In this document: piece by piece, positions 1,258-60,460 of the stretch
Position numbering within the stretch: the stretch's first letter is position 1
Layout of the letters: each line of letters begins with the position of its first letter
Assembly (NCBI RefSeq): GCF_026914185.1
Contig: NC_070560.1
Coordinates: forward strand, 4,331,501 to 4,395,500
DNA from: Puccinia triticina
Lineage: Eukaryota > Basidiomycota > Pucciniomycetes > Pucciniales > Pucciniaceae
Direction: 5' to 3'
DNA length: 64,000 nt
The notes under the pieces: generated by a model
What the model was told of the DNA's origin: nothing
Seen by the model: only the letters and a program-made list of their open reading frames with translations
The model's database searches: none
Position numbers and translations under genes: made by a program

Positions 1258-1478
1258 TGGTCATCAAGAGCACTGTCAGCCATCAATGATTGGCTGTCCT
1301 GCTAACTGTCTGCCCGGTCATTGAGAGAATCAAAAGCAATCAATGACCGGCTACACATATAACCAACCATAAAGAATATGGCAAGCTCTCAATGACTGGC
1401 TATACTGGTCATCAAGAGCTTTCTCAATGACTGGCTATACTGGTGATTGAGAGCTCTCTCAATGACTGGGTATACCGG
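1258..1478. repeat. Alternating-palindrome minisatellite, left block
   Basis: Diverged units of about 31-35 bp combine two palindromes: ATGACYGG-N5-CCGGTCAT and GAGAGCTCTC. Units repeat head to tail, so both strands look alike. The array resumes at 2462 after a solo LTR and again at 18350 after element A, which shows that both retroelements landed in one pre-existing array. I see no coding potential. Confidence 0.8.
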
Positions 1479-2461
1479 TGTGGTGTTCCATATGCGTGTC
1501 AATGCCAAAAGCACATTGCAGAGGTATTATAGTAGAGGGAGTGTGTAATACAGTGCGGGGGAAGAAGGGAAGAAGGAGCAAGATGGCAGGAGAGGCCTTG
1601 ACCCCCCACATTGGGGATGGAACAGGTTAGACAGTGGATGCAGAGTGTGTGGAAGAGGATGGAAGGTGGCTTGGTTGCATAGCAACACATGACATCATGC
1701 AGTGCAGTACATGCATGAAAGTGCTGTGTAGCTCAGCGCCTCATGCAGCATATATCTCTCATTGTTTGTACGTATAGTACAGCATATGCAGGTAGATAAG
1801 CTGTACAGGAAGTGTCTCCTGCAGCATAAACCCCTCATTGTTTGTACATGCAGCGCAGTACATGCATGAGAGTGCTGTGTAGTGGAGATCCCCTGCAGCA
1901 ATAATCCCTTGTGAGGAGCTTCCCTGGAGCAAAAATCCCTCACCCTTCAATATATAAGGAGGCCCTTTCCCCCCTCATCAGCCTAGGAAGGTTTGGTCAC
2001 AGTAGCTAGTTTAGTCAGCAGTGGTTATTAGTGGTATTAGTGATTAGTACAAGTAGCGTAGAAGTTTAGTAGCGGTATAAGTGTGTCAGAAGTAGTAGAA
2101 CCAAGAATAACACAACAACAAATTTGAGTTAAGCAGCATATTAGTAACGTGTAGTACGGGTATAACAAAGTAAGTATATTGCCTGCGTGCGAAGAAGTTA
2201 TAACAGATTTGCTAGCCTGTTGAATCAAGTGATCTAGGTCTGATAGAGATTACTATATGAAAGTAAGATCTATCTTGGAATCAGCCATATCTTTATAAAT
2301 ATTGATTACAAGACTCTTAGATATTTGCATAGTATTATTAGAGGGGCAGGTCTTTCAAACCACCCGTAAGTTGTAATAGCCTTTCAACCTATTAAGCAAT
2401 TTATTTCCCCCTCAGCAGATATTTCACCAACTTATATTTAGTGTCCCACATGAGTCCTACA
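1479..2461. mobile_element. Solo LTR (983 bp) inside the palindromic array
   Basis: It starts TGTGGTG and ends CCTACA, and is flanked by CCGG on both sides (1475-1478 and 2462-2465), consistent with a short target-site duplication inside the array. A TATA box (TATATAAG, 1951-1958) lies about mid-length, followed by a strong donor-like GTAAGTA at 2170 and acceptor-like CAG sites near 2410, the same promoter-then-intron layout as other LTRs here. Short repeats around CTCATTGTTTGTAC lie at about 1700-1900. No internal coding region accompanies it. Family unknown. Confidence 0.6.
1951..1958 (+). promoter_or_regulatory. LTR TATA box
   Basis: TATATAAG inside the solo LTR, followed by pyrimidine-rich sequence where initiation would be expected. 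The + orientation is inferred from this box. Confidence 0.45.
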
Positions 2462-2669
2462 CCGGTCATTGAGAGCCCTCTCAATGACTGGATATACAGT
2501 TATCAAGAGCTCTCTCAATTGGTATATACCGGTCATCGAGAACTCTCTCATTAATGACTGGCTACACCGGTCATCAAGAGCGTTCTTGATGACTGACTAT
2601 ACCGTTCATCAAGAGAGCTCTTGATGACTAAATTTACCGTTCATCGAGAGAGCTCTCAATGACTGACTT
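2462..2669. repeat. Alternating-palindrome minisatellite, middle block
   Basis: Continuation of the array at 1258-1478 with the same two palindromes. It ends in GACTT (2665-2669), the left copy of element A's target-site duplication. Confidence 0.8.
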
Positions 2670-2981
2670 TGTCAGGTTCCAAAACAAGGAGCTGAACACT
2701 TTCTATCCTGTAAGTGTCCTCTTTGAGCAAGACAGCGCCGCTGTTGGACGCGAAGAACCAGCCTTGTTCTGAACTTGGCTTGTGTACTAATCATAAAACC
2801 CTACCGCAGCTTTGGCAGGCAAAGCTTTAGCCTTCAACCCTGATTCCTGGTCAGGTGTGGCGTCCAACCCCGACTCTTGGGCAGGTGTGGCGCTTATTTC
2901 TCCTGAACCCTGAGTTTCCTCAGCAAGAAAGGTTTTCCCGATTCGTCGGATCTCTAACCAGTCAGTAACCTGACTTGTGTC

Positions 2982-2988
2982 TATAAAA
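2982..2988 (+). promoter_or_regulatory. TATA box of LTR A
   Basis: TATAAAA followed by TGGAGCTG; the same box is at 17072-17078 in the 3' LTR. This is the likely RNA polymerase II promoter of element A. Confidence 0.6.
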
Positions 2989-3425
2989 TGGAGCTGCTCT
3001 GTTGCCAGAAGCTAACTCTTCATCCTCTTTTCATTGTCATCTTCAAACACACTAGCATCAGCACCTGACCAACAAAACTCCTTAAAACCTTTACAAAAGA
3101 ACCTTTAGTCTTTCCCATAATAACTCGCTTAAACTTGTTGCCATACTTGGCCTCTATCTTTTTCTTCATTTTAATCTCAAACTTCTCGCTGCCGAACTCG
3201 GCATAATCTTCCTTTTAAATTAATCTCAAAATTCCCGCGTCCTGCACCTCGGTGCTTTCCTCACGATTCTCATCTACCAGTGTCTCTTCAGTAACACTTT
3301 CAATCTTTGTCTCAAATAATATCCGCTTAAACTCTACCCTTGCTCTTAGGTAAGAGCACCAGCTTGTTTCTGCTTCCCATCTCTTTTTCACGACTCCTAG
3401 TCTGATCTGAAATATATTGCTCTTA

Positions 3426-3808
3426 GGCCCCGTTTGGCACCAATATAATTATAGGTGATATAATCGCTGATTAATTCAATAAAAAATAGAAAATTCAACA
3501 TAAAGCCTCCAAATTTTTTTTGTAAGCAATCTAAAGTGCTGGTCTCTTCAACTTTGAAATCAGATTCAACTGATTCAGCCATCTTCAGCACCATAATACC
3601 ATTATATTACTTTTGACCAACATGAAGTGATATAATGGTATTATGATGCTGAAGATGGCTGGATAAGTTGATTCTGGGTTCACAGTTGAAGAGACCAGCA
3701 CTGTAGGTTGCCTACAAAAAAAATTTGGAGGCTTTATGTTGAATTTTGAATTTTTTATTGAATTAATCAGCAATTATATCACCTATAATATTGGTGCCAA
3801 ACGGGGCC
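3426..3808. mobile_element. Harbinger/Tourist-like foldback MITE (383 bp)
   Basis: Ends GGCCCCGTTTGGCACCAATA and its inverse, flanked by TTA on both sides (3423-3425 and 3809-3811), as expected for PIF/Harbinger MITEs. Almost the whole element is one inverted repeat with a small centre near 3600-3620, so it can fold into a single long hairpin. It lies exactly in the 3' splice-site-like TTAG of the LTR intron-like unit. The 3' LTR lacks it, which gives the empty site for comparison. No coding capacity. Confidence 0.88.
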
Positions 3809-3935
3809 TTAGTTCTCTTAATTCTCACAGATTTACAGTCTTGAAGCAGAAAACCGGTACGCCTCAAAACACCCAGAAATCATAAGAGCAAGGACGACCA
3901 CGACTTCAAGCAAAGAAGAATTGTCAACCCTTCCA

Positions 3936-5552
3936 ATGCTAATTGGCAACAGCAACTACCCAATGTGGTTGCAGCGATTGACGACATACCTTGGCCATAA
4001 GGACCTCCTCACCACGGTCAACACTGATCCTGGTCCAAACCCAAACCTGAGCACCACCAAGAAACTAAACGAGGCTGCTTTCATCATAAGCTCCAAAATA
4101 GGGGACCGAATCTATCACGGTATTGTCACTCAGCAGCGTGCGTCAAACGGGTATGCCATCTGGGCCAAAGTCAAAAGGATGTATGGTTCCAACAGAATTC
4201 ACAATTGGATCCGCGCGACCAACAAGTGGAACAACTTGTTCTTCAACGGTGATATTAATCAGTTCTTGGATCTGGTCGAATTATCTCTTGCCAAATTCGC
4301 TGCAATTGGAAAAATCACATCCAAAAGCAACATCTGCGGCTTTATTATTGCTAAAATATCCTCAAAACGACTTGGCCTGACCGATCCACTTTTAACCAAT
4401 GAGGTCTTGCAAAGCGACTCAGAAGCCCTTATTGAGAAACTCAGAGACCTAGCCAATCATGAAGAATTGAGCCACAAGCCCAATCACACCAAAAGGACTG
4501 CCATCGCATTGACAAGCAACTCTTGTGTTAGGCCGCCGCCGCGATGCAAAAAGGTCCACAATCCGAATGCAACTCACCCTGAATTGAAATGCTGGGCGCT
4601 GTATCCACACTTAATACCAGTTCGCGATCTTCCAGCAGCCAGTAATAGCACCACGGTAGCACCCGTTCCACCATCATCCCAAGCCACCGCCTATGAAACG
4701 CCAGCTTTTGCCAACATCACCACAGCTCAGTGTCTGCTTACCAAACCGCACCAACTTGCTCCAGTTCTTGATTCAGGAGCCTTGCACCATATGTTGAATG
4801 ACCTGTTGTTCTTCACTGAAACCAAAGTTGTAAACATCCCAATCAGCACGGGCAAAGGTGCAAATGACTTAACAGCAACCCAAGGAGGCATTGCAAAGAT
4901 CTTTCAATCAACAGGAAAGCTGGTGGTTCTTAGAAACGCCCTCTATGTCCCAGGTCTCACGCGCAACCTGATCTCGGTGGGGCAGCTTATGGAGAAGGAT
5001 ATCCGAATTTGCAAAGTAGCAGGCACCTATGAAGTTGTCATTGACAACTCCATCTTCTTTTCCTGTAACTTAATCAACGGCATCTTTGAGTTCAACTCAC
5101 CTATAGGTCCAGTCTCAGCTCTTGTCACCAATCTTGCTAGCACGACACATTCTCTAACCACATCGCCATTTCAAACCTGGCACAACCGCCTCGGGCATGC
5201 CAGCGCAGGAAAAATCAGAGTCGCAGTCAACAACGCCTCTCTCAGCCCATCATCAGCCTGTGACTCATGTATGCTTGGAAAGACCTCAAAACTTCCGTTC
5301 AAGGGTAGCTTTGACACCACGAGAAATCCACTTGAGGTGATTCATGGTGATTTGGTTGGCCCCATCTCTCCCTCAACCAATTCAGGGGCTAAGTACTTCC
5401 TCACCTTGGTTGACCAACACACCAGGTATATCAGTGTTACTCTTCTCAAAGAAAAGTCGGCCGCATGCAAGGCGATTATTGATTTCAAAACCTTCTTTGA
5501 AACCCAGACTGGATTCCGCATAAAGAAGCTCATCACGGACGGAGGCGGCGAA
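3936..5552 (+). pseudogene. Element A gag-protease-integrase N-terminal part
   Basis: Open frame from the ATG at 3936. It shows the copia Gag (UBN2-like) start with GNSNYPMWLQ, the aspartic protease motif DSGA, the HHCC zinc region of integrase (WHNRLGH ... CDSCMLGK), and the first two catalytic Asp of the integrase core (HGDLVGP and TDGGGE). It stops at the insertion point of element B, between the Glu codon of TDGGGE and the next Phe. Remaining pol lies at 10808-11979 and 13332-14468. Confidence 0.85.
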
Positions 5553-5858
5553 TGTTGAGGTTTTGTGTTTTTTTCCTTTCTGTTTCAGTATGCTTCCAAC
5601 CTATCACTCGTCTTTCATCTTTCTTCATTCTGTGACATGTGTATGTAGGCATCTAGCTCAACGGGTGTGCGTGCGTGGAAGCTCCTTTTCCTCATCCTTC
5701 CACGCATGTACTCATCACTGTTGTCCGTTGAGCTAGGTGAGTTCTTTTCTTTCTCTTCTTTCTTTCCTTTCTTTTCCTTTCTTTGTTGTTGCAATGAATC
5801 TTATCCTTCCACGCACGTACTCATCACTGTTGTCCGTTGAGCTAGGTTCATTGCAAGA
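5553..5858 (+). repeat. 5' LTR of element B
   Basis: 306 bp, TGTTGAGG...TTGCAAGA (the end is not the canonical CA). It holds a direct duplication of about 40 bp ending GTTGAGCTAG, at about 5694-5736 and 5806-5845, and an inverted copy upstream. The first copy is followed by GTGAGT, so 5737-5845 reads as a GT...AG intron-like unit. Confidence 0.85.
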
Positions 5859-5942
5859 GGTTATGAGCACCTTCTACCGCTGACGTGAACACCATCAATA
5901 CTGCTTGAGGATCCGTAAGCTTCACGTTAAAGCTAGAGACAT

Positions 5943-8900
5943 ATGCAGTCTCCACCATCGCCTTTTCTGAAGAACGCCGAAAATACCATCAACCAATCAT
6001 CATCACCCACAAACTCCCCACCCAACCCCAAGCCAACCATGTCTGCGAGCACTGGCCAGGAAACCTGGACACACCCCGCCGTGAAAACCGCCACTATTGA
6101 ACGTCTCAAAGCGCCTGCGCCAGGGTCCCACTATTCTGAGTGGACCTGGTTCATGCAAGCACATCTTAACACGACCGATGTGATTTACGTTATCGACAAA
6201 CAGCCGGAGAAAGCCAAAACCAACCCGAACCATGTCCGCAACAACAAGGCCGCTTTTGGAGCCATCTCTGGCACCATCCATTCCGCCCATGTCCGACTGG
6301 TTTGTCACATCACCAACAACGCACGCGCCCTCTGGATCGCCCTCAAGGCCGCCCATCAGGACTCCTCAGCCGGAGGTATAACCTACTACCTCAGGAGGCT
6401 CACCTCCGCTCGCATGCACGGTGATGATCTCCTCGCTCACCTGGAAGGCATGGCCAAAGATTTTGACCAGCTCGCCACGCTAGTAACCCCTGAAGCCCCC
6501 CTCACTGTCGACGACATCTACTCCACCTCAATTCTTACTTCCCTCTCTCCCGACTGGCTCTCTTGCGTCTCTTCAATGATGAACGAGCCGAGAGGTGCGC
6601 CAACCAAGCTAATTGACGCACTCAAGTCGGAGCATCTCAGGCAAAAGACAAGGAACAAGGACCAGAGCCTGCTAGAATCCATGGCCAGGGCTTCCCTTTC
6701 TCAGCCCAACTCATCTCGACCTCCCAGGCCTCCTCTTGACCACGCCCTCTACTGTTCCTTCTGCAAGCGCTCCGGACACAACCTCGAGGTGTGCGAGAAC
6801 GCTGCCAGGATCTTAGCCAAACACAATCGCCGGAACTCATCATCAAATCGCCGCTCTGGTGCAGGCAGCCAGTCAGGGAGGTCTTTGGGCAACCGTTTTA
6901 AACATTGTCCCCAAGCAAAAGCGGGCCAGACTACGGTAGTAGATCTAGGGGGGAATGATAACAACGACGAGTCGGACTACTCCGGGTCTGAAGTTGATAA
7001 GTACTCCACCTCCTCTCCTCCCCCTGCCAAAGCAGGCAACGCCACAGCAGTACTACAGCGGTCCGCTGAAGTCTGTTTGGGCGCCATGAGAGACGCAAAC
7101 CTCGACTTGGGCTGCTCCATCTCAATGACGCCCTACATGGATCAGGTCAAGAACCCAGTGTCTGATGACACTCCCATTCGCCTGGCGGATCACTCCCTTG
7201 TCAAGGCAACTCACCGAGGCTCCTTTACTCTCCCAGTAGAGTCCAGCACATTGATTCCGGCACTTGTTGTCCCTGCTCTACATGAACCACTTGTATCAAT
7301 CTCCGGTCTTTGCAATGCCAACTTGACGGTCGTATTCAACAAATTGACCTGCTACATCTATAGATCTAATAAGGTCGTGGTGTCGGGCACTCCAATTGGC
7401 ACAGGGTACAGGAAAGAAAATCTCTATTATCTTCCCTCGGACAATGTGAGGTCTCATTCAGCCTCCTTTTCCATTCTTCCAAGGCATGATGATTCCCTAA
7501 TGGGATTCCATATTCGCCTGTCTCACATAGGCCTCCGGCCCCTGAAACAACTTCTTCGCCGTCTCGACATACACCCGACTATCCTGAACGAGGTGGAAGT
7601 TCAGCAATGCCCCACGTGCATGCAATCAAAAATGCATCGGCGCCCATTCCATTCACGCGCCTCCTACCAATCCGATGAACCCAGAAAGATTATTCACTCC
7701 AACGTTGGCTCCTTCAAGGTCCCCTCAAGAGAGGGCTATAAATATTTTGTTACTTTTGTCAACGATTGTTCCAAATACACTTCCGTTTTTCCCATGAAAT
7801 TAAAATCCCAAGTTCTATCCTGTTTCAAAATTTTTCGCGCATTTTTCGAGAAGACTGGTCAGCACAAAATCCTCTCTCTGCTTTTGGATAACGGAGGAGA
7901 GTATGTCTCAAAGGAGTTTGAGCTTTACCTGAGTCAAGCGGGAATTACACACGAGCCTGGCCCTCCCCACTCACCCAAGCTAAATGGAGTGGCGGAAAGA
8001 ACTAACAGAACAATAGGCAACTTGGTGAGGTGCTCTTTACTCAATGCGCATCTCCCCAAGATCTTCTGGGCAGACACTTTGCGTCATGTGTTTCACTCCT
8101 TCAACTCCTTCCCCTGCCGCACTCCGACCGGTTTTCTGGCACCCAACAAAATCCTGGACAAGCCTCTTGTCTCCCCCAAGCATCTCCATCCTTTCGGCTG
8201 CCTGGCGTGGTACAAGGTGCCAGAGGCCAACAGGAAGAAACTCAACAATAAAGGTAGAGCCACCGTTTTTCTCTCATATCTCCGTGACGGAAACGGGTTT
8301 TGGGTCTGGGATCTGGAAAATCATTCAGTGGTCAAAACTCGCGATATCATCTGTGAGGACACTGTTTTTCCTTATGCCTCCCCCCTCTCAAAGCCAGCCG
8401 ATCCTGTGTTTGTTGAACTACCATGGCCATCCAACTATTGCCGTCCCAAACCTCAGTCCGCACCACCAGATTCCCCTCCAGACGTGCCTCAAACTGCGCC
8501 GGATCCAAACCCTCCGTCCCCAGTGAGGACACCCACACCAGATCTACCTCTCCTGAACATTCACCTTGAACCGCGTTTTGACAGACGCCTAACAGCATCA
8601 ATACATGCGCCGCAAATTGAGTCCGGACCCCTTCCTCCCAAATCTCCCTCCCCTCCCCCTCATCAAACGTCACCATCTGAAGATATCTTGCCTCCTGCAC
8701 CGCAACCCGCGCTCCAGCCCTCCAAATCAAAAAAGAAGGTCAACGTACAACCAACACTTTCGCTGCAAAATTTGTCTAGGACCAGCCGTCCACCGGATGG
8801 CTACGGGGACTGGGCCAAATCAACTGGTCCAGCGGGAGATATCAACACCCCCAAGACCTGGAAACAGCTCATGAAATCGCCAAACAAAAGCAAATGGTTG

Positions 8901-10349
8901 AAGGCGGCGGACAATGAATTTTCTTCCTTACTAGGTATGTCCACCTGGCGCCTTGTTCCCCAACCGGCGAAGCGCAAGATCATCAAATCCAAATGGGTAT
9001 TCAAAGTTAAACGGCGGGCAGATAAAACTATTCAAAAACTTAAAGCGCGCCTGGTCGCCATGGGGTACACACAAGTGCAAGGCGTGGATTACAAAGAAGT
9101 TTTTGCTCCTACTCTACGCTTGGAAACCCTGAGGCTAATTCTTTCTTTAATGGCTATCAAGGGCTGGAAGGGACGACAAGTTGATTTCAAAACAGCTTTC
9201 CTCAACGGCAAACTGTCCGAACCAATCTACATGGAACAACCGCCGGGATTTGAAGACTCAGAACACCCTGATTGGGTCTGCAAAGTGAACAGATCAATTT
9301 ACGGTCTTAAGCAGTCACCAAGAGAGTGGAACATTGAGCTTCATCGCGGCCTTATTGAATGCGGTCTCAAACAATCGAAATACAACCCCACCCTGTACTT
9401 CAAGTTGAATGACAACACTCTAGTTGGTGCAGTTACCGTCCACGTCGATGATCTCGCCATTGTCAGTGACTCATCCTTTGTGGACCCCCTAATCACCAAC
9501 CTTGGCAAGAAATTCAAAATCAGAGCAGATGAAGACCTACATCTTTTCCTGTCCATGAAGATCACGCGTGATCTCTCCAACAGTCACGTCTATGTCTCAC
9601 AATCTCACTACATCGACAAGCTTCATCAACGGTTTCTCCGGGACAACCACATACCTGTCTCGACTCCAACTGACTTGTTGTTTAAGAATCTAGTTCCCCG
9701 CACGGCAGATGAACCACCCTCATCGGGGCCGTACAATCAGCTCATTGGCTCCCTGCTTTGGGCAGCGCAGTGCACTAGACCCGACATCTCCTTTGCAGTC
9801 AATTGTCTATCGCAATTTCTCAGAGATCCCTCTGACTCCCACTGGAAAGCCGCGGTTAGAATTCTGAACTATCTGATCAAAACTAACAATCTTCGTCTCC
9901 GTCTGGGTGGGTCCTTAAACTGCTCAGGTTACAGCGACTCAGACTGGGCGGAGGACCGCCACAACAGGCGCTCGACCTCGGCGTACACATTTCGCATAGG
10001 GGACGGCGCAATCTCCTGGAAATCTAGAAAACAAGCAACGGTCTCCTTGTCCAGTACCGAGGCGGAGTACAAAGCGATGTCGGATTCATGCAAAGAAGGT
10101 CTTTGGATCCGATACATTCTGTCGGAGCTACGCCTTTGGCCCAAATCAGCTCTCCCACTCCATGTCAATAACGCGGGCGCTAAGGCCCTGGCGAAAAACC
10201 CCGAGCATCATTCCCAGACAAAGCACATCCACACCCGTTTCCACTTTGTGCGCAACTGTGTCAAGGCCAAAAGACTGGTGGTCATGCACGTGTCAACTAA
10301 GGACATGTTGACAAAACCACTCTCCAGGACTTCTCTCGAATCTCAGTGA
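5943..10349 (+). CDS. Element B Gag-Pol polyprotein (1468 aa), catalytically suspect
   Basis: One uninterrupted frame. In order: Gag with a CCHC knuckle (CSFCKRSGHNLEVC), protease, integrase HHCC region, integrase core ending LDNGGEY...GVAER, RT with HVDD, and RNase H (SDSDWAED, STEAEY, QTKHIH). Length is normal for copia. Several key residues are altered: protease DSG is DLG (7108), the integrase HSD is HSN (7701), FVDD is FVND (7761), and the RNase H VDN is VNN (10167). Every one is a CpG transition. The frame is intact yet the enzyme is probably dead unless supplied in trans. A downstream Met at 6039 is an alternative start. Confidence 0.88.
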   Translation: MQSPPSPFLKNAENTINQSSSPTNSPPNPKPTMSASTGQETWTHPAVKTATIERLKAPAPGSHYSEWTWFMQAHLNTTDVIYVIDKQPEKAKTNPNHVRNNKAAFGAISGTIHSAHVRLVCHITNNARALWIALKAAHQDSSAGGITYYLRRLTSARMHGDDLLAHLEGMAKDFDQLATLVTPEAPLTVDDIYSTSILTSLSPDWLSCVSSMMNEPRGAPTKLIDALKSEHLRQKTRNKDQSLLESMARASLSQPNSSRPPRPPLDHALYCSFCKRSGHNLEVCENAARILAKHNRRNSSSNRRSGAGSQSGRSLGNRFKHCPQAKAGQTTVVDLGGNDNNDESDYSGSEVDKYSTSSPPPAKAGNATAVLQRSAEVCLGAMRDANLDLGCSISMTPYMDQVKNPVSDDTPIRLADHSLVKATHRGSFTLPVESSTLIPALVVPALHEPLVSISGLCNANLTVVFNKLTCYIYRSNKVVVSGTPIGTGYRKENLYYLPSDNVRSHSASFSILPRHDDSLMGFHIRLSHIGLRPLKQLLRRLDIHPTILNEVEVQQCPTCMQSKMHRRPFHSRASYQSDEPRKIIHSNVGSFKVPSREGYKYFVTFVNDCSKYTSVFPMKLKSQVLSCFKIFRAFFEKTGQHKILSLLLDNGGEYVSKEFELYLSQAGITHEPGPPHSPKLNGVAERTNRTIGNLVRCSLLNAHLPKIFWADTLRHVFHSFNSFPCRTPTGFLAPNKILDKPLVSPKHLHPFGCLAWYKVPEANRKKLNNKGRATVFLSYLRDGNGFWVWDLENHSVVKTRDIICEDTVFPYASPLSKPADPVFVELPWPSNYCRPKPQSAPPDSPPDVPQTAPDPNPPSPVRTPTPDLPLLNIHLEPRFDRRLTASIHAPQIESGPLPPKSPSPPPHQTSPSEDILPPAPQPALQPSKSKKKVNVQPTLSLQNLSRTSRPPDGYGDWAKSTGPAGDINTPKTWKQLMKSPNKSKWLKAADNEFSSLLGMSTWRLVPQPAKRKIIKSKWVFKVKRRADKTIQKLKARLVAMGYTQVQGVDYKEVFAPTLRLETLRLILSLMAIKGWKGRQVDFKTAFLNGKLSEPIYMEQPPGFEDSEHPDWVCKVNRSIYGLKQSPREWNIELHRGLIECGLKQSKYNPTLYFKLNDNTLVGAVTVHVDDLAIVSDSSFVDPLITNLGKKFKIRADEDLHLFLSMKITRDLSNSHVYVSQSHYIDKLHQRFLRDNHIPVSTPTDLLFKNLVPRTADEPPSSGPYNQLIGSLLWAAQCTRPDISFAVNCLSQFLRDPSDSHWKAAVRILNYLIKTNNLRLRLGGSLNCSGYSDSDWAEDRHNRRSTSAYTFRIGDGAISWKSRKQATVSLSSTEAEYKAMSDSCKEGLWIRYILSELRLWPKSALPLHVNNAGAKALAKNPEHHSQTKHIHTRFHFVRNCVKAKRLVVMHVSTKDMLTKPLSRTSLESQ

Positions 10350-10501
10350 TCATGATTTGGCATTGTCTAATTTCTGACTCCCTTTTTTTTTGGTTGTTTT
10401 CTCTTCCTTCTCTCTAAATTTTCCCTTTTTTTTTTTTTCTTTTCTCACTTCTAAAATGTTTTCATTTTTTTTTTCTTCTCTAGGTTGTCAGCAAGGGGGG
10501 G

Positions 10502-10807
10502 TGTTGAGGTTTTGTGTTTTTTTCCTTTCTGTTTCAGTATGCTTCCAACCTATCACTCGTCTTTCATCTTTCTTCATTCTGTGACATGTGTATGTAGGCA
10601 TCTAGCTCAACGGGTGTGCGTGCGTGGAAGCTCCTTTTCCTCATCCTTCCACGCACGTACTCATCACTGTCGTCCGTTGAGCTAGGTGAGTTCTTTTCTT
10701 TCTCTTCTTTCTTTCCTTTCTTTTCCTTTCTTTGTTGTTGCAATGAATCTTATCCTTCCACGCACGTACTCATCACTGTTGTCCGTTGAGCTAGGTTCAT
10801 TGCAAGA
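10502..10807 (+). repeat. 3' LTR of element B
   Basis: 306 bp, near-identical to the 5' copy. It is preceded by a purine tract ending at 10501 and followed by the GCGAA duplication. Confidence 0.9.
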
Positions 10808-11979
10808 GCGAATTCGTCAACAAAGCACTCTCCAAGCAGCTCAAAGTCGCGGGTATTCAGCACAATGTTGCTCCGCCTTATACACCGCAGCAGAACGGTG
10901 TGGCTGAACGAGCCAACAAGACTATAATCAACATGGCGCGGTGCATGATGATTCACTCAAATTTAGCAAAAGAGTGGTGGGGAGAGTCCGTCAAGACCGC
11001 CATGATGACGACCAATTGTCTTCCTTCTCTTAGCCGCAGCAAAACCTCCCCGCTTGAGCAACTGTTCAAGAAAATACCAAACCTCAAATTCTTCAAGCCG
11101 TTTGGGTGCAAGAAGTGGATGATCAAGCCAAAGCAGCTACGCACAGGCAAATTCGACCCAGTTGCCTGGGAAGGCATCTTCATTGGCTATAGCAACAACT
11201 ACTCGGCTTATTGTGTTGTCCGACTCAGTGACAGAAAAATAATTGAGACTCGCCACGCGTATTTTGATGAATCCATTTTTCCCCTTCTTTCAGCTCTAAA
11301 TCCCAGCCTGGATTCTTTCAGCAATTTGCCGTTTGCAGAAATCATTTCCTCTCCTATCCTGCCATTTGAGTCTGCTTATCGCGAATCATCCTTGGACCCC
11401 GCTCTTGAAATCAATCAACAATTTGACTCCCAAGAAAATCCGGCTGATCAAGACCCTGACTCCATGGATCTGGATGAAGAGGACAATGATGTCAGCAATG
11501 ATGAAGATACCCCGGAACCGCCTCGGCGCAGGCTCATTATTCATGAACCTTGACACCCAACTCTGATCCAAAGCAATGTTAATGAATCCAACATTCTCAA
11601 ATACTCCAGACGCCGCCCGCAGGCCTTCTCGACGATCATGATGGATCCCAAGAATCATTGACAGGCCATGCAGAGCCCTGACGGTACTCGGTGGAAGGAA
11701 GCCGAAGAAAGAGAGATCCAGAACATGGTTGATCACAACGTCTGGATCAAAATCCCTCATCAAGAAGGCTTGAATCCAATCCCCTCAACTTGGGCTTACC
11801 GCAAGAAGCTCGGCCCAAGAAACAAGATCATTGAATACAAGGCCCGGGTTTGTGCCCAGGGATTTTGACAGACGTATGGTTTAAATTTTGGTCTGAAATA
11901 TGCTCCAACAGGGAAGCCTTGCTCTCTTTGATTTCTCCTCTCATTCGCAACTATCAATAATCTTCTTATCCACCAACTA
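10808..11979 (+). pseudogene. Element A integrase C-terminus and RT N-terminus
   Basis: This continues the integrase core after element B: FVNKALSK, then PPYTPQQNGVAERANK with the catalytic Glu, a linker, and the RT start (WKEAEEREIQNMV, YKARVCAQGF, YAPTGK). The frame holds four TGA stops (11551, 11659, 11866, 11929) with no indel between them. At each one the copia consensus or context allows Arg, CGA. It is cut by the TIR element at 11980, between codons for HQL and DVKSAFL. Confidence 0.82.
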
Positions 11980-13331
11980 CACAGCGGAACAAGTGGGATG
12001 TCAGGAGGGCGGCCGACCGGACGCCAGCAGGGCCCCGCAGTAGTCGGACGCCCTGATGCCGCCGTTCTGCCACACGCCGCCAGGGCGTCAACCAGCCCTG
12101 CCCTGCGGCCATCTTGGGTGGCGCACCTAGGTCAGCCCAGATGGGCGCCAACCCGACCGAGGCGCAGGGGGGGCGACCTCAGGGCGCCAGGGCGGGATAT
12201 CCCCCGGGCGTCCATGCTGAGATTGTTGGGACATCTGTTTGGGCGATGGCCTCAGGGCACCTATGGGGATGCAAGGTAGACGTGCTCTTCGACGGCATGC
12301 TCCTGCGTCTGCGGTTGCCATGAAGACATGCCTTGAGGCCGCTGTGAGGTTCGCAGGTGGATTGGGCCCCGGAAGGTCATCTGGGCATGATATCGGCAGC
12401 AGTCATAGAAGCTGACTGGGGTAGCATCTGTGCATCGGTGTGACACGGTGGACGCGGGCACTGGGCTGCCGATTTGCATGGTTAGGGTCTCACGGGCGAT
12501 GGCGCCTGACTGAAATGCTTGCATGTATTATATATTTAATTTTACTTATACAAACAGCAAGGAAGGGGACATATGAGATACAACAAGGTGCACATATAGG
12601 CTATTTGCACGGCAGGGATACACATGGAGGGTGAGGGAAGGGGGAGCTACATAGAATAGGGATGGAATCTTCCGGAGGACTCTTAATGAGGGGAAGGTGA
12701 CATACATATCTGCAATCTTGGCACCAAGGGCACTGAGATGAGCATCACTGCAGGAGGATGTTGAGGAAGAGTCAGGAGAGGTTGGAATGGTACCCCACGC
12801 ATGGGGGTATTCAAGCAGCTGAACATTGAGGAGCGGAGTTGTTTGGGGCACAAGGAGAGTGGTCTTTATAGACCTGCGCGTGCTGATCAACCACATTTTT
12901 TTGTGGCATTATTATTGAATACGCATACGAACTAATCCAAGCTGGCTGGATTGCAACATGGGCCCTTTGATCACCCGCACCTGGACGGGGAGCCCATCGG
13001 GCGTCCTAGCCGCTCTAGCGACCCCAGGACGCAGTGGCGGCTGCCCATAACCAGTGGCGCCATCTGGACCCCTGCGTCAGCCAGGCGACCGGCATGGACA
13101 CCCCCCTGACAGCCGGCGGTGACGCCTCCCCTACCGGTGCGTCACGCTGGCATCTCACCGGGGCAGCCATCTGGCGCCTAGGTTGGTGGCATCTCAGTGG
13201 CGCCCGAGGGGCGCCACCTATGCCCACAGTCCCGGTGGCGCCCCCTAGCATGACAGAGTGGCGCCTGTACGGCCCTGGGTCCCTGTCACGCCAGCTGGAC
13301 GCATCGGCTTTGCCCGATCTGCCCCGCTGTG
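11980..13331. mobile_element. GC-rich TIR element with TA duplication (1352 bp)
   Basis: Terminal inverted repeats CACAGCGG...CCGCTGTG flanked by TA (11978-11979 and 13332-13333). Removing the element and one TA restores the RT reading frame exactly. The two arms are GC- and CpG-rich, with many GGCGCC words (GTGGCGCC recurs in the right arm); the centre (about 12500-12960) is AT-richer. It has no recognisable transposase, so it is non-autonomous. The TA duplication suggests the Tc1/mariner superfamily, but the ends are not a classic match. Its CpG density contrasts with the decayed host element. Confidence 0.75.
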
Positions 13332-14468
13332 TAGACGTCAAATCCGCTTTTCTCACTTGCAACCTGAAGGAAACCGTCTATCTCACTCCTCCGCCTGGTT
13401 TCAAACCCGAGTGTCAACTCCTCCTCAAGCTAAACAAGGCAATCTACGGGCTTAAGCAAGCATCACTTGCTTGGTACAACAGGCTTAGTGAGTTTCTTGT
13501 TTCCATTGGCTTCAGCATCTCAATTGCGGACCCATGTGTTTTCTGGAAACTCAATGGGATTCCCACCTGGATCTTTGCTCATGTGGACGACCTTGTTGTA
13601 ATTAGTCGTGACCCCTCTGCTTTTTGCACGCAGATGGAAAAGGAGTTCAAAATCAAATATATAGGCAAAGCTTCCTTTCTTCTAGGCATGAAGCTGGACA
13701 AAACCGACTCCAGCTTCATCCTTCATCAAGCCCAGTACATCGAGCGCAAATTGCTAGAGTTCAAAGCTTCTGACCTTCCCCCTGCGTCATGTCCTCTCAA
13801 TCCAAAGGTCCACCTTGGCAAGGCCACGCAAGAAGACATTGATCAGCTGACTCCGCTCAATATCAACTTTTGAGCTCTGATTGGTTCATTAAACTATCTG
13901 AGCATACTGACCCGACCTGATATATCCTACGCTGTCAGTAAGCTTTTGCAATATCTCAAGAACCCCGGATTGTCACATTACTCCGCTGCCATCCAAGTCT
14001 TTTGCTACCTAAAAGGTACACGCATGACAGGCCTGTCTTTTGCCAGGAACAACGTCACTCCCCTTTACGTCTCCGTAGATGCCGATTGGGCAAACTGCCC
14101 AGACTCAAGGTGCTCGCACACTGGATATCTCATCACCATGAATTCCCATCTTATCTCATGGAAGTCATGCAAACAGTGTACCGTTTCTCTGTTGTCAACG
14201 GAAGCGGAGTACAAGGCTCTCTCAGACGCCGGCAAAGAGGTCATGTGGATCACCAACCTCATCAACGAAGTCACTCCCGCAAAACAACCATCTATCCCGA
14301 TTGTCTTGGTCGACAATCAAGGTGCAATCGACCTTGCTATTAGTCAAACCAGTCAGAACGGTTTTCGCACAAAGCACATGGACTTGCGCCTCCATCACGT
14401 GCGAGAACTCATCAAAAACAACCAAATCAAGCTTTGGTATGTTCAGTCACAAAGCAACACGTCTGTAC
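13332..14468 (+). pseudogene. Element A RT C-terminus and RNase H
   Basis: Resumes with DVKSAFLTCNLKETVYL, then IYGLKQA, HVDDLVVIS, a TGA at 13871 within the conserved segment NF-ALIGSLNYL, then RNase H (DADWANC, STEAEYKALSD, VDNQGAIDLA, RTKHMDLRLHH). It stays in the same frame on both sides of the TGA. It is interrupted at 14469 by a foldback element. Catalytic residues of RT and RNase H remain visible. Confidence 0.82.
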
Positions 14469-16636
14469 GGAAGCCGAGGGACAACACCAATTGCGCCATC
14501 GCGCCATTGCGCCAAATCACTGTGTTGCGAGTCGCAACACAGTGATTTTGGGGGATCAGTCGCAACTTGCGACTGATCCCCCAGAAAATCTCCCACACTA
14601 TGTGCACATCACCCCCTAGAAAAACATCCAGAAGGAACGATACATCACTTGTATCGATACAGGTGTATCAATACATCGCGTGTATCAATACATTGGTACA
14701 CTGATACATTTGTATCGCTATCATACGTATCGGCATATCGGTACATCAATACATATGTATTGGTAATTCGATACATCCATACTTTTGTATTGGTAATTCG
14801 ATACAGATGTATTGGCACACAGATGTATTGGTACATTGATACAGATGCATTGATACATCGATATCGAATAATTTAGAGCTGGAACCCGCGGGGTACGGGG
14901 CGGATTTCTTCCCGCCTGTCAAAATCCCGGCAGGTATACCCGCCCGCGGGTACCGACTCGGGGATACCCCTTGGGGCCTTCCGGGACATGGATACCTGCC
15001 AACCCGCGGTGTGGTAGACGCTTTAGTTCTGGATGGAAAAGTTCAAAAATTTCTAGTTTACATATGTAGTGTTACATTACACCATCTTTTGATACACACA
15101 CTCCCTTCAGTTTACATACACAGTTTTACAAAACTGCATGTATATAGCTTACATACTACCCTTTTACATATATATGTGGCTGTGTAGCAACCAGCCAGCC
15201 TCATATGCAGCTGTGTAGCAACCACAAGCCACTTATTACAGTAACCTAGCAACCACAAGCCACATTAATAAAGCGGCATAGTAACCATGGGGCTGTGCAA
15301 GTCAATCAAGCAGACTACACAGCAATACAGAAAGCTGTGCAGGTCACTTGAGAAGACTCCATAGCAACCAGAGGGCTGTGTAAGCCACACTTGTAACTAG
15401 ATCACCAGCTAAATTTGCTCATGTATACACTGCCACACTGTACATAGCTGTATTTGCACAGAATTTGTAAAGGCACACCAGCCAAAACCCCTCATGTACA
15501 TAGACCACCAGCATAAATGCCTCACATTTTCCTATATAAGGAGGGGCTCTCTCTTCCTTTTCCCATCATCCATTGAAGGAAGGAGATCATTCCCCCCCAA
15601 GATTCAAATAAATTGTCACCCTCACACTCTCCGCCACATAATAAAATACTAGCTTTATATTTTGAAATACACAGTCCGTTGTGAGCCACTTGTGAGAAAA
15701 GTATTCAACTACACTAGACCACTGTCTTCTTGCTTCCAGCCTAGCTGGGGGTGTTGTCAGTCTTTGTCTTTCAGAGAAGCAGGGGTTTCCCCTCACTTCC
15801 TTCTCTAAATTCAGCCATAAGAGGTGCAAACTGCTTTTGGAGTCTCACAGCGGGACACGGGTATATGTACCCTGCTGACCTGTGGCCCCCGGGGGATACA
15901 ACACACCTCCCCGTGGGATACGATACACCTTCCCGCGGGATACAATAGGATAATCATACAATTCACGCAAGCTCCATACTCCCGCGGGGCGGCACTGCCC
16001 TGCGGGAACGTGCACCGCAGGAGTCATCCCAAAACCCCTTCCCGCGGGTATGCCCCGGCACCTCGGGTACGGGTTCCAGCGCAAATCAATACCTCAATAC
16101 ACAAGTATCGCTACATTGATACAGATGTATTGAGTTGCCGATACGTCTGTATCGATGGAGCGATAGTTACCGATACATCTCTATCAATGTAGCAATAGTT
16201 ATGTATCGATACATCTGTATCGACTTACCGATACATCTGTATCAATGTACCAATACATCTGTGTACCAATACATCTGTATCGAATTCCCAATACAAATGT
16301 ATGGATGTATTGAATTACCAATACATATGTATTGATGTACCGATATGCCGATACGTATGGTAGCAATACAAATGTATCAGTGTACCGATGTATTGATACA
16401 GGCAATGTATCAATACAAGCAATGTATCGATACACATGTATTGATACAAGCAATGTATTGTTCCTTCTGCTGTGATGTTTTTCTATGTAGGGGGTGATGT
16501 GCACATAGTGTGGGAGATTTTCTGGGGGATCAGTCGCAACTTGCGACTGATCCCCCCAAATCACTGTGTTGCGACTCGCAACACAGTGATTTGGCGCGAT
16601 GGCGCGATGGCGCGATTGGTGTCGTCCCTCGGCTTC
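14469..16636. mobile_element. Long-TIR foldback element (2168 bp)
   Basis: Ends GGAAGCCGAGGGAC and GTCCCTCGGCTTC, with a likely TGTAC duplication at 14464-14468 and 16637-16641. Inverted arms run about 400-550 bp: CGCGCCAT tandem words, then palindromes TTGCGAGTCGCAA and GTCGCAACTTGCGAC, then a minisatellite of TGTATCGATACA-like palindromes (14640-14870 and 16090-16450). The core holds CCCGCGGGTACC-rich stretches, tandem repeats of CTGTGTAGCAACCA and a TATA box at 15533. No protein is recognisable. Transposon superfamily unknown. Confidence 0.72.
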
Positions 16637-16641
16637 TGTAC

Positions 16642-35321: not shown

Positions 35322-35339
35322 ATTCTCAAAACAATCAAT

Positions 35340-35508: not shown

Positions 35509-35512
35509 AATG

Positions 35513-47492: not shown

Positions 47493-47554
47493 GGTTATGG
47501 GCCCAGAAGCGTAACCGGACCTACCTTGAACAACGTCACAACGCGATCATTATA

Positions 47555-52687: not shown

Positions 52688-52695
52688 ATTCCAAG

Positions 52696-55846: not shown

Positions 55847-55857
55847 GAGAGGGGGGG

Positions 55858-56707: not shown

Positions 56708-57240
56708 CCACCTTGCCTTGCTATCATGGGATCCAGCTTTGGAGGTTCAAAATTGGGAGGACTTACTTACACACCACCTTGCCTTGCTAACACTAGTTTA
56801 GTCTCATTGCAGAGACAGTCTCCACTTTCTATGCCAGAGTCATGTGGTCCACCTTTCCCAATAGTCCTAGCTTCTGCCATCTTCGCCATGAGTGCTACAT
56901 TGCCTGAGAAATGAGTTCCACACGGGGTTTTCTGCTCACATATGTGGCACTTGGTAGAGCTTTGAAGGTCTTTGACATCCAGACCAGGAGTTGCACAATT
57001 GGAAAGACTTACTTGCACTCTGTGTTGCCTTCGTAAAGCTAGTTTAATCTAATTGTAGAGGTGGTCTCCATCATCCATGCAGGGGTTCCATGGCTCTGGA
57101 GGCCCGTCATTTAGACATTAATTTTGGGTTTGAAGTTTGGGCTCTTCCTTGGGTCTTTGTTTTGGAAAGATGGGTTGGAGTTGTGCCTTTGACTGTTAGG
57201 TTCTGGGTCTTGCAGGGCAGAGGGTTGGTATCTGCTTGTG
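56708..57240. repeat. Dispersed repeat, about two units; no gene seen
   Basis: Units containing CACCTTGCCTTGCTA, TTTAGTCTCATTGCAGAG and CATATGTGGCACTTGGTAGA appear twice, at about 56703-56830 and 56935-57070, and resemble 46735-46814. No recognised protein. Confidence 0.45.
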
Positions 57241-57246
57241 TGATTT

Positions 57247-58026
57247 TTAGGCGGGTACCCGGGTACCGCCGCTTGATACCCGCCAATACTGCTACCTCTT
57301 TTCCGCTGTGTATGTCCCCGACCCACTTCTGGACTTGCAGTCTCCTGCAAGTCCTGTGTGATATCCCCGGCTGCAGCGCCACCAGCTTGCCGAGAGGGAT
57401 TAGGGATTCCTCTCGGGGAGCAGGTATACGCCCACCAGCCCGCCAAGAGGGATTCCTCTTGGCGAGCAGGTATGCACACACCAGCTCGCCGAGAGGTCGG
57501 AGAGCAGGTATGCACACACCAGCTCAGAGGTCGGAGAGCAGGTATGCACACACCAGCTCGCCGAGAGTTCGGAGAGCTGGTGTACACACACCAGCTCGCC
57601 GAGAGGGATTCCTCTTGGCGAGCACTGGTATACACACACCAGCTCGCCAAGAGGGATTCCTCTCGGCGAGCAGGTATACACCCACCAGCTCGCCAAGAGG
57701 AATGCCTCTCGGCGAGCTGGTGTGTGTATACCAGTGCTCGCCGAGAGAAATCTCTCTCGGCGAGCAGGTATAAATCCTCTCTCGGCGGCAGGTATACTGA
57801 TACCAGCTCGCAGAATCCCGAGAGGGATCCCTGAGAGGGATCCCTCTCGGCGAGCAGGCACATATCTACAAAAAACAACTTGGCGGGTACCGCCGGTACC
57901 CGCCAGAAAGACCCGGGTACCGCCGCCGCGGGTGCCAAGTACGGGTACGGGTATCTGTTTTGGGCCAAAAAAGCAGGCGGTACCCGGACACGCGGCGGGT
58001 ACCCGGGTACCAATTGCCATCTCTAT
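57247..58026. mobile_element. GGTACCCG-ended element with palindromic minisatellite
   Basis: The right end, GGTACCAATTGCCATCTCTA, is the inverse of the AGATGGCAATTGGTACC start of the element at 44676, so it belongs to the same hAT-like family. The left part begins GGCGGGTACCCGGGTACCGC near 57250, but the exact left terminus is not clear. Between them lies the array at 57397-57860. TTTGACAG follows the right end; TTTGACTG at about 57189 might be its partner duplication (7 of 8). Confidence 0.6.
57397..57860. repeat. Alternating-palindrome minisatellite (CTCGCCGAGAGG)
   Basis: About ten units of roughly 25-50 bp. Each joins CTCGCCGAGAGG-N4-CCTCTCGGCGAG, a perfect or near-perfect hairpin, to GCAGGTATACACACACCAG, itself partly palindromic around GTATAC. 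Long open frames on both strands here are translations of the repeat. Confidence 0.8.
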
Positions 58027-59544
58027 TTGACAGTAGTGTCAACCTGCACCAACTTTAGCAATAAAGTTGGCTGGGTGAGGAAAATCCCTGGATGGAAGAT
58101 CCAAGACCCAACTGCCATTCTTTTTTGAAACTGCTGTAGATTGCAGGATGAGGAAGATGCCTGGATCTTCAGCATCTCAAACTATGAGTGTGCAGAATGT
58201 AACATGCATGTTACAGGTTATGTACATCATGATGTCCCTGCTAAAGCTCATAACAGGTACCTGCCACACTTCAGAACATGCCCTCCACACCACAAGCCAC
58301 CATTCATGAAGGTAGAGAGGGTGTAGTAATGACAAAGGTTCAGCACTGGAGCCTCTGGAGGTTGTTATTTCTCTGGAGAAATAATTGAGGAATTTTAACA
58401 CCAGGGGGGAATGCGTGGCCCTCTCTAGAGAGTTCCAGACCACAATTTTATCAGTCAAATGGTCTGATGTGAGTTCAATGTCAACTGTAACCCTTTTCTC
58501 AACTTTTTTCTCAATCCAAACGTAAATTTAGGTGAAGTTGTTTCCAACTGATCTTCCTCAACGCCAACACATGCAAATCTCTGGTGAAATTGTTTGTCGG
58601 GTCCATCTTGATCACATTCTGGATGTTAACTTCAATGCACAAGATGTGGTGCCAAGCATTTGACTATACTTATGCTAAAAATATCCTTGACTAAGTGACA
58701 AGGAATATTTTGGAGAGCTGATTTCTTTCATTCAAAACACATTTAAAATGAGATTGTGCAAAAAACTTGTAAAATGTAGCAACTGCAACCAAGTGGTAGA
58801 TGAATCCTTCGGGCATGTTTCTGTCATGCCTATTCCTGTAACAAATTGGGAGGCAAGTGATGTTAAAACCAAATGTCTATTCCTTGAGTATCAAACAGTG
58901 CCAAAGCTGGGAAAAGCTGTGTAACTTATAACTTTCCACATTGCAATGCAGTGGAATGTGAACAATACCGGGGGCTGTTTTCCCTACCATGTTAAACAAA
59001 GGATGGAATACTCATGAAAGGTAAAGTTTGAAGTTTCATCAGCTGTTACTTTTGTACCATACCTGGCATATGAGAATACACATTGCAAAATTTTCATAGT
59101 TTTACCGCCACCTGACTAAAAAATGTGGCTAGTTGTGAAATTAATCAAGTTTCTCAAGAGAAAGTGGTTAGATTGGTGGATATCAATATAGGTTCATCAA
59201 TATTTCAGTGATACTGGAACCAGCAGGCAAAGAAATTCAGAAACTGGTCTGATAAATCCAAGGTGAACAGTGAATTCTTAAATGCCCATGCACATCCCAG
59301 CATGGGTAACACCTTTTGTCTTGTAGATTGATTATCTTCACATCTTTTCCCTGAATTTTTCCGCCCATTTGTTCCTACAGAGAGCATGCTTTCATCACAG
59401 GTACCATCATGTTGATGAGCATTGTGCAACAACATGGTGTTGATTGCTATTATGACATGGTACATAGTAGCCCAGTTCTTAGATAACATTGATGCAATTT
59501 GTAGTAGTATCTGCTTTATCCAGACCAATCAACATAATTCACCT
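58027..59544. other. No gene seen
   Basis: About 1.5 kb, AT-rich, with many stops on both strands. A small hairpin at 58200-58220 (TGTAACATGCATGTTACA) is the only structure that I noted. Confidence 0.5.
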
Positions 59545-59658
59545 GCACCAGGAAAAAACAATCATCACTTGTCTGCAAGTGACATAGCAAAGTAAAAAGG
59601 GGCCTTTGTACTTTCTCATGTCACTTGTAGGCAAGTGACCATTGTTTTTTCCTGGTGC
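59545..59658. mobile_element. Small foldback MITE-like hairpin (114 bp)
   Basis: GCACCAGGAAAAAACAAT and its inverse at the ends, with an inner pair TCACTTGTNNGCAAGTGA on each arm. No clear target duplication found. Confidence 0.55.
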
Positions 59659-59799
59659 TGGGAGGAGGAGCATTTGCACCCATGTATATGTGGTAAAAAG
59701 CACAAAAAAAGCAGGGATTTTCAAGGTGGGAATAAGTCAACAGCAGCTGCAGCGGGACAACAGAGATCAGCTCTGCATCTAGAGATGTCCCCAACAAAC

Positions 59800-60460
59800 C
59801 CGTTGCAGGTACCTGCTATCCGCTGGCGGGTACCCACACATGTTCGGCGGGTACCCGCCAGCGTGTGCGTGTTTGGGTGCAGATGCTGGATTTCTGGGAG
59901 AAATTGAGTGGTTACCTGCTCTTGTTTGGCAGGTGGTGGCTGCCATGACGACCAGAAGGACTGGGAAGGCCTTCCTTCCGGTCAAATAGGTTTTGTAACC
60001 TCTTTGACTAGAAGGATTCCTTCCGGTCAACGAGGTTTTGTAATCTCTTCAACTGGAAGGCTTGCCCCCTGCTCACAAGCTGAGGAAGGCGCTGCAAACC
60101 TCAAAATATGCGGAGTTAGGTAAGCAAAGCAAACCCTTTCTTGAGTTTCTGACCAGTAACAACAATCAACAGAGGTTTTCTGTTTTAGTAATCTTGCTGC
60201 CCTTCCAGTTGAAGAGGTTACAAAACCTCTTTGACCGGAAGGATTCCTTCCAGTCATAGAGACAAAACCTCTTCAACCGGAAGGATTCCTTCCAGTCAAA
60301 GAGGCTACAGAAACCCTTTGACCAGAAGGAATCCCTCCTGTCAAAGAGGTTTTGTGACCTCTTTGAGTGGAAGGAATCCTTCCAGTCAATTTTGAGGGGC
60401 AGGTACCCTCCGGTACCCGCGCGGGTACCTGCACGCTCTGACCCACTCCGCGGGTGCGGG
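59800..60460. mobile_element. GGTACCCG-rich element with palindromic minisatellite, cut by hAT 2
   Basis: The left part holds GCAGGTACC and GGCGGGTACCCGCC words (59803-59870), the right part GGTACCCGCGCGGGTACC (60411-60428), and between them the array at 59960-60400. It resembles the elements at 44676 and 57247. Its right end is interrupted by the terminal repeat of hAT 2 at 60461, so boundaries are approximate. Confidence 0.55.
59960..60400. repeat. Alternating-palindrome minisatellite (GGAAGGATTCCTTCC)
   Basis: Units combine GGAAGGATTCCTTCC with GGTCAAAGAGG-TTTTGTAA-CCTCTTTGACC, two palindromes of different sequence in strict alternation. An unrelated 140-bp stretch (60065-60200) interrupts the array. 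Confidence 0.78.

What the first reader, a model, noticed from the sequence alone, without database searches (positions are those of the whole stretch)
1258..60400. Six unrelated minisatellites share one design: two alternating palindromes
Loci: 1258-2669 plus 18350-18690 (CCGGTCAT and GAGAGCTCTC), 14640-14870 and 16090-16450 (TGTATCGATACA), 30268-30400, 57397-57860 (CTCGCCGAGAGG), 59960-60400 (GGAAGGATTCCTTCC with GGTCAAAGAGG). Primary sequences are unrelated, yet each array can form strings of hairpins on both strands. Several lie inside transposon-like ends. This points to a common process or function, such as hairpin-driven amplification, protein binding or replication slippage at cruciforms, acting on different sequences.
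Basis: partly seen in the sequence, partly recalled or inferred. Interest (0 to 1): 0.75.

Follow-up and report, generated by a model that had tools for sequence, protein, structure and literature searches.

The report
Mirror-image repeat arrays inside rust transposons
In the wheat leaf rust genome, several kinds of jumping DNA carry arrays of a short sequence repeated in regularly alternating directions, common enough to be a genome-wide design; the arrays look more like rows of protein-binding sites, or a by-product of ordinary duplication, than like products of hairpin copying.

Summary
The observation largely holds, with corrections. The window is Puccinia triticina Pt15 haplotype A. The palindromic arrays are real, fold better than shuffles and are common: 12 in 200 kb sampled elsewhere, none in Markov sequences. 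"Two alternating palindromes" is one property: a tandem array equal to its own reverse complement has exactly two centres per period.

The window holds five array families, not six. Four sit inside non-autonomous DNA transposons: PIF/Harbinger-like (TTA/TAA duplications), IS3EU-like (6 bp) and two hAT-like (8 bp). The 1258-18690 locus is one array cut by two LTR insertions. The five half-sites are mutually unrelated by my test, but outside the window one half-site, CCGGTCATYRAGRGG (12,430 exact copies, control 5), marks 6 of 12 sampled arrays; the window's first family carries a one-letter variant.

Hairpin-arm copying is not supported. Half-sites are better conserved than spacers, and symmetric arrays cluster at periods of 40-48 bp. 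My reading is arrays of binding half-sites growing by whole-period duplication, resembling VANDAL motif arrays. The protein is inferred, not shown, and a neutral origin is a close rival.

The parts
1195..1478 (+). Left remainder (boundary about 1195, by eye) of a PIF/Harbinger-like MITE with the first stretch of the CCGGTCAT array (1258-1478); no terminal repeat was found at its left in this copy
   Evidence: complete copy on contig 7 (L057+L050) has GAGCATCTCC ends and TTA on both sides
1479..2461 (+). Solo-LTR-like insertion (TGTGGTG...CTACA) flanked by CCGG, splitting the array; multi-copy
   Evidence: 40 of 796 candidates scored
2462..2669 (+). Second stretch of the same array, ending in the target duplication GACTT (2665-2669)
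2670..18349 (+). LTR retroelement, with other elements nested in it, inserted in the array; repeats at 2670-3259 and 16760-17349 are 99% alike; GACTT on both sides
   Evidence: described only
18350..18849 (+). Third stretch of the array (18350-18690) and the right end of the PIF/Harbinger-like MITE (...TGGAGATGCTC, followed by TAA)
14466..16640 (+). IS3EU-like non-autonomous element; target duplication CGTCTG (14460-14465) / CATCTG (16641-16646)
   Evidence: 6-bp duplications in 8 of 8 copies looked at (6 exact, 2 with one mismatch, this one included)
14640..14870 (+). TGTATCGATACA array, left half
16090..16450 (+). TGTATCGATACA array, right half (mirror of the left)
15008..15853 (+). 845-bp high-copy insert inside the IS3EU-like element
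   Evidence: 40 of 182 candidates scored; 39 besides the window, 89-98% identity
30268..30400 (+). Palindromic array (45-bp period) of a multi-copy element of undetermined type; inverted partner stretch at 30543-30610
57236..58025 (+). hAT-like MITE lacking its left end here; right end TTGCCATCTCTA
57380..57860 (+). CTCGCCGAGAGG array (46-48 bp period)
59780..60460 (+). Second hAT-like MITE, left end TAGAGATGTCCCC, right end missing here
59972..60389 (+). CCGGTCAAAGAGG / GGAAGGATTCCTTCC array (45-bp period)
   Evidence: copies of the family
60689..60813 (+).
   Evidence: it did not pass the TRF symmetry test (p 0.32)
35173..35511 (+).

Best explanation
The arrays are internal modules of non-autonomous DNA transposons of at least three kinds in Puccinia triticina. 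SHOWN: half-units alternate in orientation in most steps; four families have TIRs and target duplications of expected lengths; in the family measured, arrays vary in length between copies more than their flanks do; direct neighbours, not hairpin arms, are the most alike, which fits growth by duplication or unequal exchange of whole periods; outside the window one half-site class is very abundant and is better conserved than the loops and spacers between its copies. INFERRED: the half-sites, about 22 bp (two helical turns) apart in most symmetric arrays, are binding sites for a dimeric DNA-binding protein of a transposon or of the host, and multiplying them helps the elements (escape from silencing, or recruitment of transposase). 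That function is a proposal.
For: Ends and duplications, read by eye from the outputs: hAT-like family one, 8 bp exact in 4 of 7 copies with both ends (L029, L038, L040, L041), one mismatch in L030 and in L042 (7 flanking bases available), none in L039; hAT-like family two, 2 of 2 copies with both flanks (L032 one mismatch, L033 exact); IS3EU-like 8 of 8; PIF/Harbinger-like 2 of 2 copies with both ends, of 4 fetched. Alternation: 403 of 445 close steps in 18 arrays, at least 90% in 11 of 18. Half-site count 6,279 + 6,151 against 0 + 5 for the reversed pattern. In an interval that the pattern leaves free, an inverted half-site lies at offset 7-8 in 19 of 19 clusters on contig 1 (12-15 of 15 matches; shuffled mean 7.7, 99.9% point 11). 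Column identity there: core 0.79, loop 0.55, spacer 0.52. Period 40-48 bp in 11 of 16 symmetric TRF arrays against 7 of 43 clearly non-symmetric ones, p=0.0002 (12 of 71 arrays between the cut-offs dropped). The inner CpG of exact half-sites reads CA 21, TG 16, CG 16, TA 0 of 53, as expected of decaying methylated CpG.
Against: No binding protein is known, and none was sought. The exact half-site does not occur in the window; family (i) carries a one-letter variant (...AGAGC) and the other four families have no close match, so sharing across transposon types rests on few cases: family (i), and L009, whose element has other ends (TAGAGAATC, direct repeat AAACAC; type unresolved). The TET-like-gene-bearing relative L043 has no array. 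Half-units were picked by similarity to the core, so the within-array core scores are biased; only avoids this, and it uses one contig and one spacing class. The 18 arrays and 16 TRF arrays include several of the same family, so they are not independent. Seven of the 18 arrays alternate in fewer than 90% of steps, the lowest in 13 of 19.
Confidence: 0.45

Rival explanations
1. Neutral structural by-product. A MITE already contains a hairpin; a tandem duplication of a hairpin automatically gives two alternating palindromes, and slippage or unequal exchange then makes an array. No function is needed.
For: Direct neighbours are the most alike; arrays lie in TIR elements; the five window families have unrelated half-sites as far as tested; tandem repeats inside MITEs and foldback elements are known (passages of PMC12628747; PMC4079207).
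Against: Does not by itself predict half-sites better conserved than spacers, the abundance of one half-site class, or the common 40-48 bp period.
Confidence: 0.38
2. Hairpin- or cruciform-driven amplification: an arm is copied from its partner by template switching, so arrays grow and stay symmetric.
For: The arrays fold strongly as single strands. Inner arms (+0.001) lie slightly above distant opposite-direction pairs (-0.022).
Against: Inverted pairs 60-110 bp apart lie above that baseline about equally (-0.003), outer arms do not (-0.025), and direct neighbours are higher than all (+0.045). With flanking bases the contrast is larger.
Confidence: 0.1
3. A pre-existing CCGGTCAT minisatellite was captured by, or spread into, several elements by gene conversion or nested insertion, and has no present role.
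For: The half-site class is in family (i) and in arrays of differing flanks (L009, L011, L012, L016, L025, L027); array-bearing elements insert into arrays of others (L030, L033).
Against: Loops, spacers and period differ between these arrays (35 bp in family (i), 42-47 bp elsewhere) while the half-site stays.
Confidence: 0.2
4. Chance or composition.
For: Many single TRF units do not pass the shuffled-unit test.
Against: 0 arrays in Markov sequences against 16 observed; reversed-motif control 5 against 12,430.
Confidence: 0.01

Closest known systems
VANDAL transposons and VANC anti-silencing proteins of Arabidopsis (PMC5735166, abstract and passages seen)
   Same: Short motifs piled up as fast-changing tandem repeats in non-coding parts of DNA transposons; motif classes differ between families; a motif also occurs in an unrelated element (AT9TSD1).
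   Different: Alternating palindromic half-sites are not mentioned there ('palindrom' occurs 0 times in its main text); here no binding protein is known.
Tetris / Galileo / foldback elements of Drosophila (PMC4079207, abstract and passages seen)
   Same: Internal tandem repeats in terminal inverted repeats; in Galileo they hold extra transposase-binding sites (as that paper cites).
   Different: There the unit is about 220 bp. Here the unit is itself reverse-complement symmetric, about 30-48 bp, and in hAT-like family one it lies in the middle of the element.
TET+ IS3EU transposons of rust fungi (PMC12730594, passages seen)
   Same: 6-bp target duplications, ends TAYGG..CCRTA, known from P. 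triticina; the end-sharing copy L043 encodes a Tet-like 2OG-Fe(II) oxygenase.
   Different: The window element carries the array and no gene that I recognised; L043 has the gene and no array. The passages seen do not mention such arrays.
MITE-derived satellites (Xstir, miDNA4 of Xenopus; review PMC12628747, passages seen)
   Same: Copy-number change of tandem repeats inside MITEs.
   Different: No alternating half-site design is described in the passages seen.

Membership tests
PIF/Harbinger (element at 1195-18849) | 3-bp TWA target duplication (recalled; PMC12730594 states 3 bp for canonical Harbinger) | tested here: met
   TTA/TTA on contig 7 and TAA/TAA on contig 15: 2 of 2 copies with both ends, of 4 fetched
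PIF/Harbinger (element at 1195-18849) | Harbinger transposase in a related autonomous copy | not tested
   no autonomous copy was sought
IS3EU (element at 14466-16640) | 6-bp target duplication | tested here: met
   8 of 8 copies, 6 exact
IS3EU (element at 14466-16640) | TIR longer than 30 bp ending TAYGG..CCRTA (PMC12730594) | tested here: met
   inverted match of about 400 bases in the window and 37 nt at 97% at the ends of L043; ends TACGG; the right end of the window copy and of L049 differs by one base
IS3EU (element at 14466-16640) | IS3EU transposase; TET/JBP gene in TET+ lineages | tested here: inconclusive
   PF20515 (Tet-like), E 3.8e-54, in L043; only one of its three ORFs of 90 aa or more was scanned, so the transposase is untested
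hAT (57236-58025) | 8-bp target duplication and short TIR (PMC12730594 states 8 bp as usual for hAT) | tested here: met
   TIR TAGAGATGGCAA; exact in 4 of 7, one mismatch in 2, absent in 1 (L039)
hAT (59780-60460) | 8-bp target duplication and short TIR | tested here: met
   TIR TAGAGATGGCCCC; 2 of 2 copies with both flanks (L032 one mismatch, L033 exact)
hAT (both) | hAT transposase in a related autonomous copy | not tested
   no autonomous copy was sought; two window ORFs that I suspected (49384-51534) gave no Pfam match
VANDAL-type anti-silencing array | tandem array of a short conserved motif in non-coding transposon DNA | tested here: met
VANDAL-type anti-silencing array | cognate DNA-binding protein and methylation loss | not testable with these tools
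   needs methylome and binding data
Foldback element | very long internally repetitive TIRs | tested here: inconclusive
   fits the IS3EU-like element; in hAT-like family one the array is central

The most novel reading that the evidence does not exclude
Several kinds of rust DNA transposon have come to carry the same type of regulatory module: phased arrays of inverted half-sites for sequence-specific factors that lift or recruit silencing. The decaying CpG in the half-site and the TET-like genes of IS3EU relatives hint at methylation as the battleground. CCGGTCATYRAGRGG would then be an address used by more than one element, a fungal parallel to VANDAL/VANC.
Probability: 0.15. Interest if true: 0.8.

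Novelty: new variant of a known kind. Interest (0 to 1): 0.47.

Why it matters
If the half-sites are bound by a protein, this genome offers about 12,000 exact copies of one address, and existing methylation data could test directly whether such arrays protect or mark transposons. If they are not, the arrays still show reverse-complement-symmetric minisatellites growing by ordinary direct duplication inside several transposon families. They make up about 3% of the 200 kb sampled, and the passages of rust repeat papers that I saw do not describe them.

Tried and rejected
Hairpin-arm copying: tested, not supported. A first half-unit finder missed many units; I discarded its figures and rebuilt it.

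LTR elements targeting the arrays: the solo LTR at 1479-2461, and a similar sequence in L016, sit at CCGG inside arrays. Of 17 right flanks of other copies, 2 have two or more near half-sites (L067 with 8, L070 with 2), against 43 of 940 background windows; 14 of 17 flanks have CG within the first bases, by eye. Array targeting rejected.

One element with arrays at both ends for 1258-18690: rejected; the middle is LTR insertions. TET gene and array always together: rejected (L043).

hAT transposase at 49384-51534: no Pfam match. RPB2 protein search for the species: inconclusive; assembly size, contig number and N50 settled it. The type of the 30268-30400 family is unresolved. The CpG count covers exact half-sites in fetched loci, many chosen for having arrays. 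A match count with up to 4 mismatches is loose: the unrelated 57380 array scores 9 by it, all at exactly 4 mismatches.

In print: ten searches listed no paper whose title or abstract start names palindromic arrays in Puccinia transposons. The library holds open-licence papers only, and I saw listings and passages.
Full report
WHERE. The window is contig 3, 4331501-4395500, of an assembly of 122,823,596 bases in 18 contigs. Table 1 of PMC9927501 (passages seen) gives the same total, contig number and N50 (7,485,535, the length of our contig 8) for Puccinia triticina Pt15 haplotype A, the wheat leaf rust fungus. I therefore describe only.

WHAT IS THERE. (i) 1258-18690: a CCGGTCAT array of about 0.77 kb, cut by a solo-LTR-like insertion (1479-2461, CCGG on both sides) and by an LTR element (2670-18349, GACTT on both sides). 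A complete copy on contig 7 (L057 with L050) has GAGCATCTCC ends and TTA on both sides; one on contig 15 (L076 with L053) has TAA on both sides; of the other two copies fetched, neither showed both ends. The window copy keeps the right end (18849); its left end was not found. (ii) 14466-16640: an element with mirrored TGTATCGATACA arrays and an 845-bp high-copy insert. Its ends and 6-bp duplications recur in 8 of 8 copies looked at, fitting IS3EU as described in PMC12730594 (passages seen). The end-sharing 4.2-kb copy L043 encodes a Tet-like 2OG-Fe(II) oxygenase and has no array. (iii) 57236-58025 and (iv) 59780-60460 are two hAT-like families with TAGAGATG ends and 8-bp duplications, both truncated here; the searches scored 40 of 940 and 40 of 419 candidates. 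(v) 30268-30400 belongs to a multi-copy family (40 of 197 candidates scored) whose type I could not settle.

HOW COMMON. A scan that needs at least six inverted-match centres found 12 arrays in 11 of 20 stretches of 10 kb elsewhere, 6,231 of 200,000 bases, and none in Markov sequences. Six of the 12 (L009, L011, L012 second array, L016, L025, L027) hold 11-41 matches with up to 4 mismatches to CCGGTCATYRAGRGG; the other six hold 0-3. That count is loose; at 0-1 mismatch L009, L011, L016, L012 and L025 are clear (6-32) and L027 is weak (1) (counted over the whole 10-kb stretches). Genome-wide the exact half-site occurs 12,430 times against 5 for the reversed control.

ARE THEY RELATED? Within the window the exact half-site does not occur. 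Family (i) has five one-mismatch copies, because its variant ends in AGAGC, and three exact copies of that variant. The arrays of families (ii)-(v) have no match with two or fewer mismatches. Sharing between transposon types rests on family (i) and on L009, whose element has other ends (TAGAGAATC) and a 6-bp direct repeat AAACAC; the ends around the others are not determined.

THE DESIGN. A tandem array that equals its own reverse complement must have two symmetry centres per period, so "two alternating palindromes" is one property. In 18 arrays half-units alternate in 403 of 445 close steps; 59 of 59 in the best, 13 of 19 in the worst, at least 90% in 11 of 18. In an interval that the pattern leaves free, an inverted half-site was found in 19 of 19 clusters of contig 1 (one row per cluster, rows of one spacing class). 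There the 15-base core has column identity 0.79, loop 0.55 and spacer 0.52; with transitions merged, 0.93, 0.66 and 0.75. The inner CpG of exact half-sites reads CA 21, TG 16, CG 16 and TA 0 of 53, which looks like decay of methylated CpG. Periods lie at 40-48 bp in 11 of 16 symmetric TRF arrays against 7 of 43 clearly non-symmetric ones; 12 of 71 in between were left out, and several share one half-site. Family (i), with 35 bp, and family (ii), with main TRF units of 16-32 bp, do not fit that period.

HOW IT GROWS. If arrays grew by hairpin copying, the two arms of a hairpin would be the most alike. With core letters only and relative to each array's mean: inner arms +0.001 +- 0.007 (n=209), outer arms -0.025 +- 0.008 (n=198), direct neighbours one period apart +0.045 +- 0.007 (n=406), two periods +0.033 +- 0.007 (n=410), inverted pairs 60-110 bp apart -0.003 +- 0.006 (n=475), distant same-direction pairs +0.007, distant opposite-direction pairs -0.022. 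Inner arms are thus a little above distant opposite pairs, but no more than inverted pairs of neighbouring hairpins; direct neighbours exceed both. Growth by whole periods fits. In family (iii) the array part ranges 441-557 bp over 7 of 8 copies measured, the left flank 219-246 and the right 150-199 (169 in 5 of 7). In family (iv) fetched arrays span 318-1,338 bp, but some spans are inexact, because one copy (L033) sits in another array.

WHAT IT PROBABLY DOES. Conserved half-sites about two helical turns apart, with freer spacers, suggest binding of a dimeric protein. [quoted passage not shown] Rust transposons exchange TET-like genes between superfamilies (PMC12730594, passages seen), so shared addresses would not be out of place. 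None of this is shown here, and a neutral by-product is nearly as likely.

VERDICT. A real and common repeat design inside known transposon types; a new variant of a known kind. The arrays are established, whole-period growth is well supported, and the function is a proposal.

Noticed in passing
L043:2451-3605 (contig 5): Tet-like 2OG-Fe(II) oxygenase (PF20515) in a 4.2-kb element sharing the ends of the window's IS3EU-like element.
   Followed up: partly
15008-15853: 845-bp repeat inside the IS3EU-like element; 39 further copies scored at 89-98% identity.
   Followed up: no
1479-2461: Solo-LTR-like repeat; 14 of 17 right flanks of other copies begin with a CG-containing site (by eye). Not specific to the arrays.
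   Followed up: yes
L030:308-1198 and L033: Array-bearing hAT-like elements inserted within arrays of other elements.
   Followed up: partly
L078 (contig 14, 1704280-1709200): An IS3EU-like element with two further long palindromic arrays between its ends (58 and 53 centres).
   Followed up: partly
46956-47492 and 55854-56427; 35513-35842 and 40233-40562; 5553-5859 and 10502-10808: Direct repeat pairs at 92-99.7% identity that look like LTRs of copia-like elements; the first pair holds non-palindromic tandem repeats.
   Followed up: no
21206-23425: Gene pieces that look like the second-largest subunit of RNA polymerase II (RPB2).
   Followed up: partly
29069-29941 (- strand): ORF with a PRP4-like splicing-factor domain (PF08799).
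   Followed up: no
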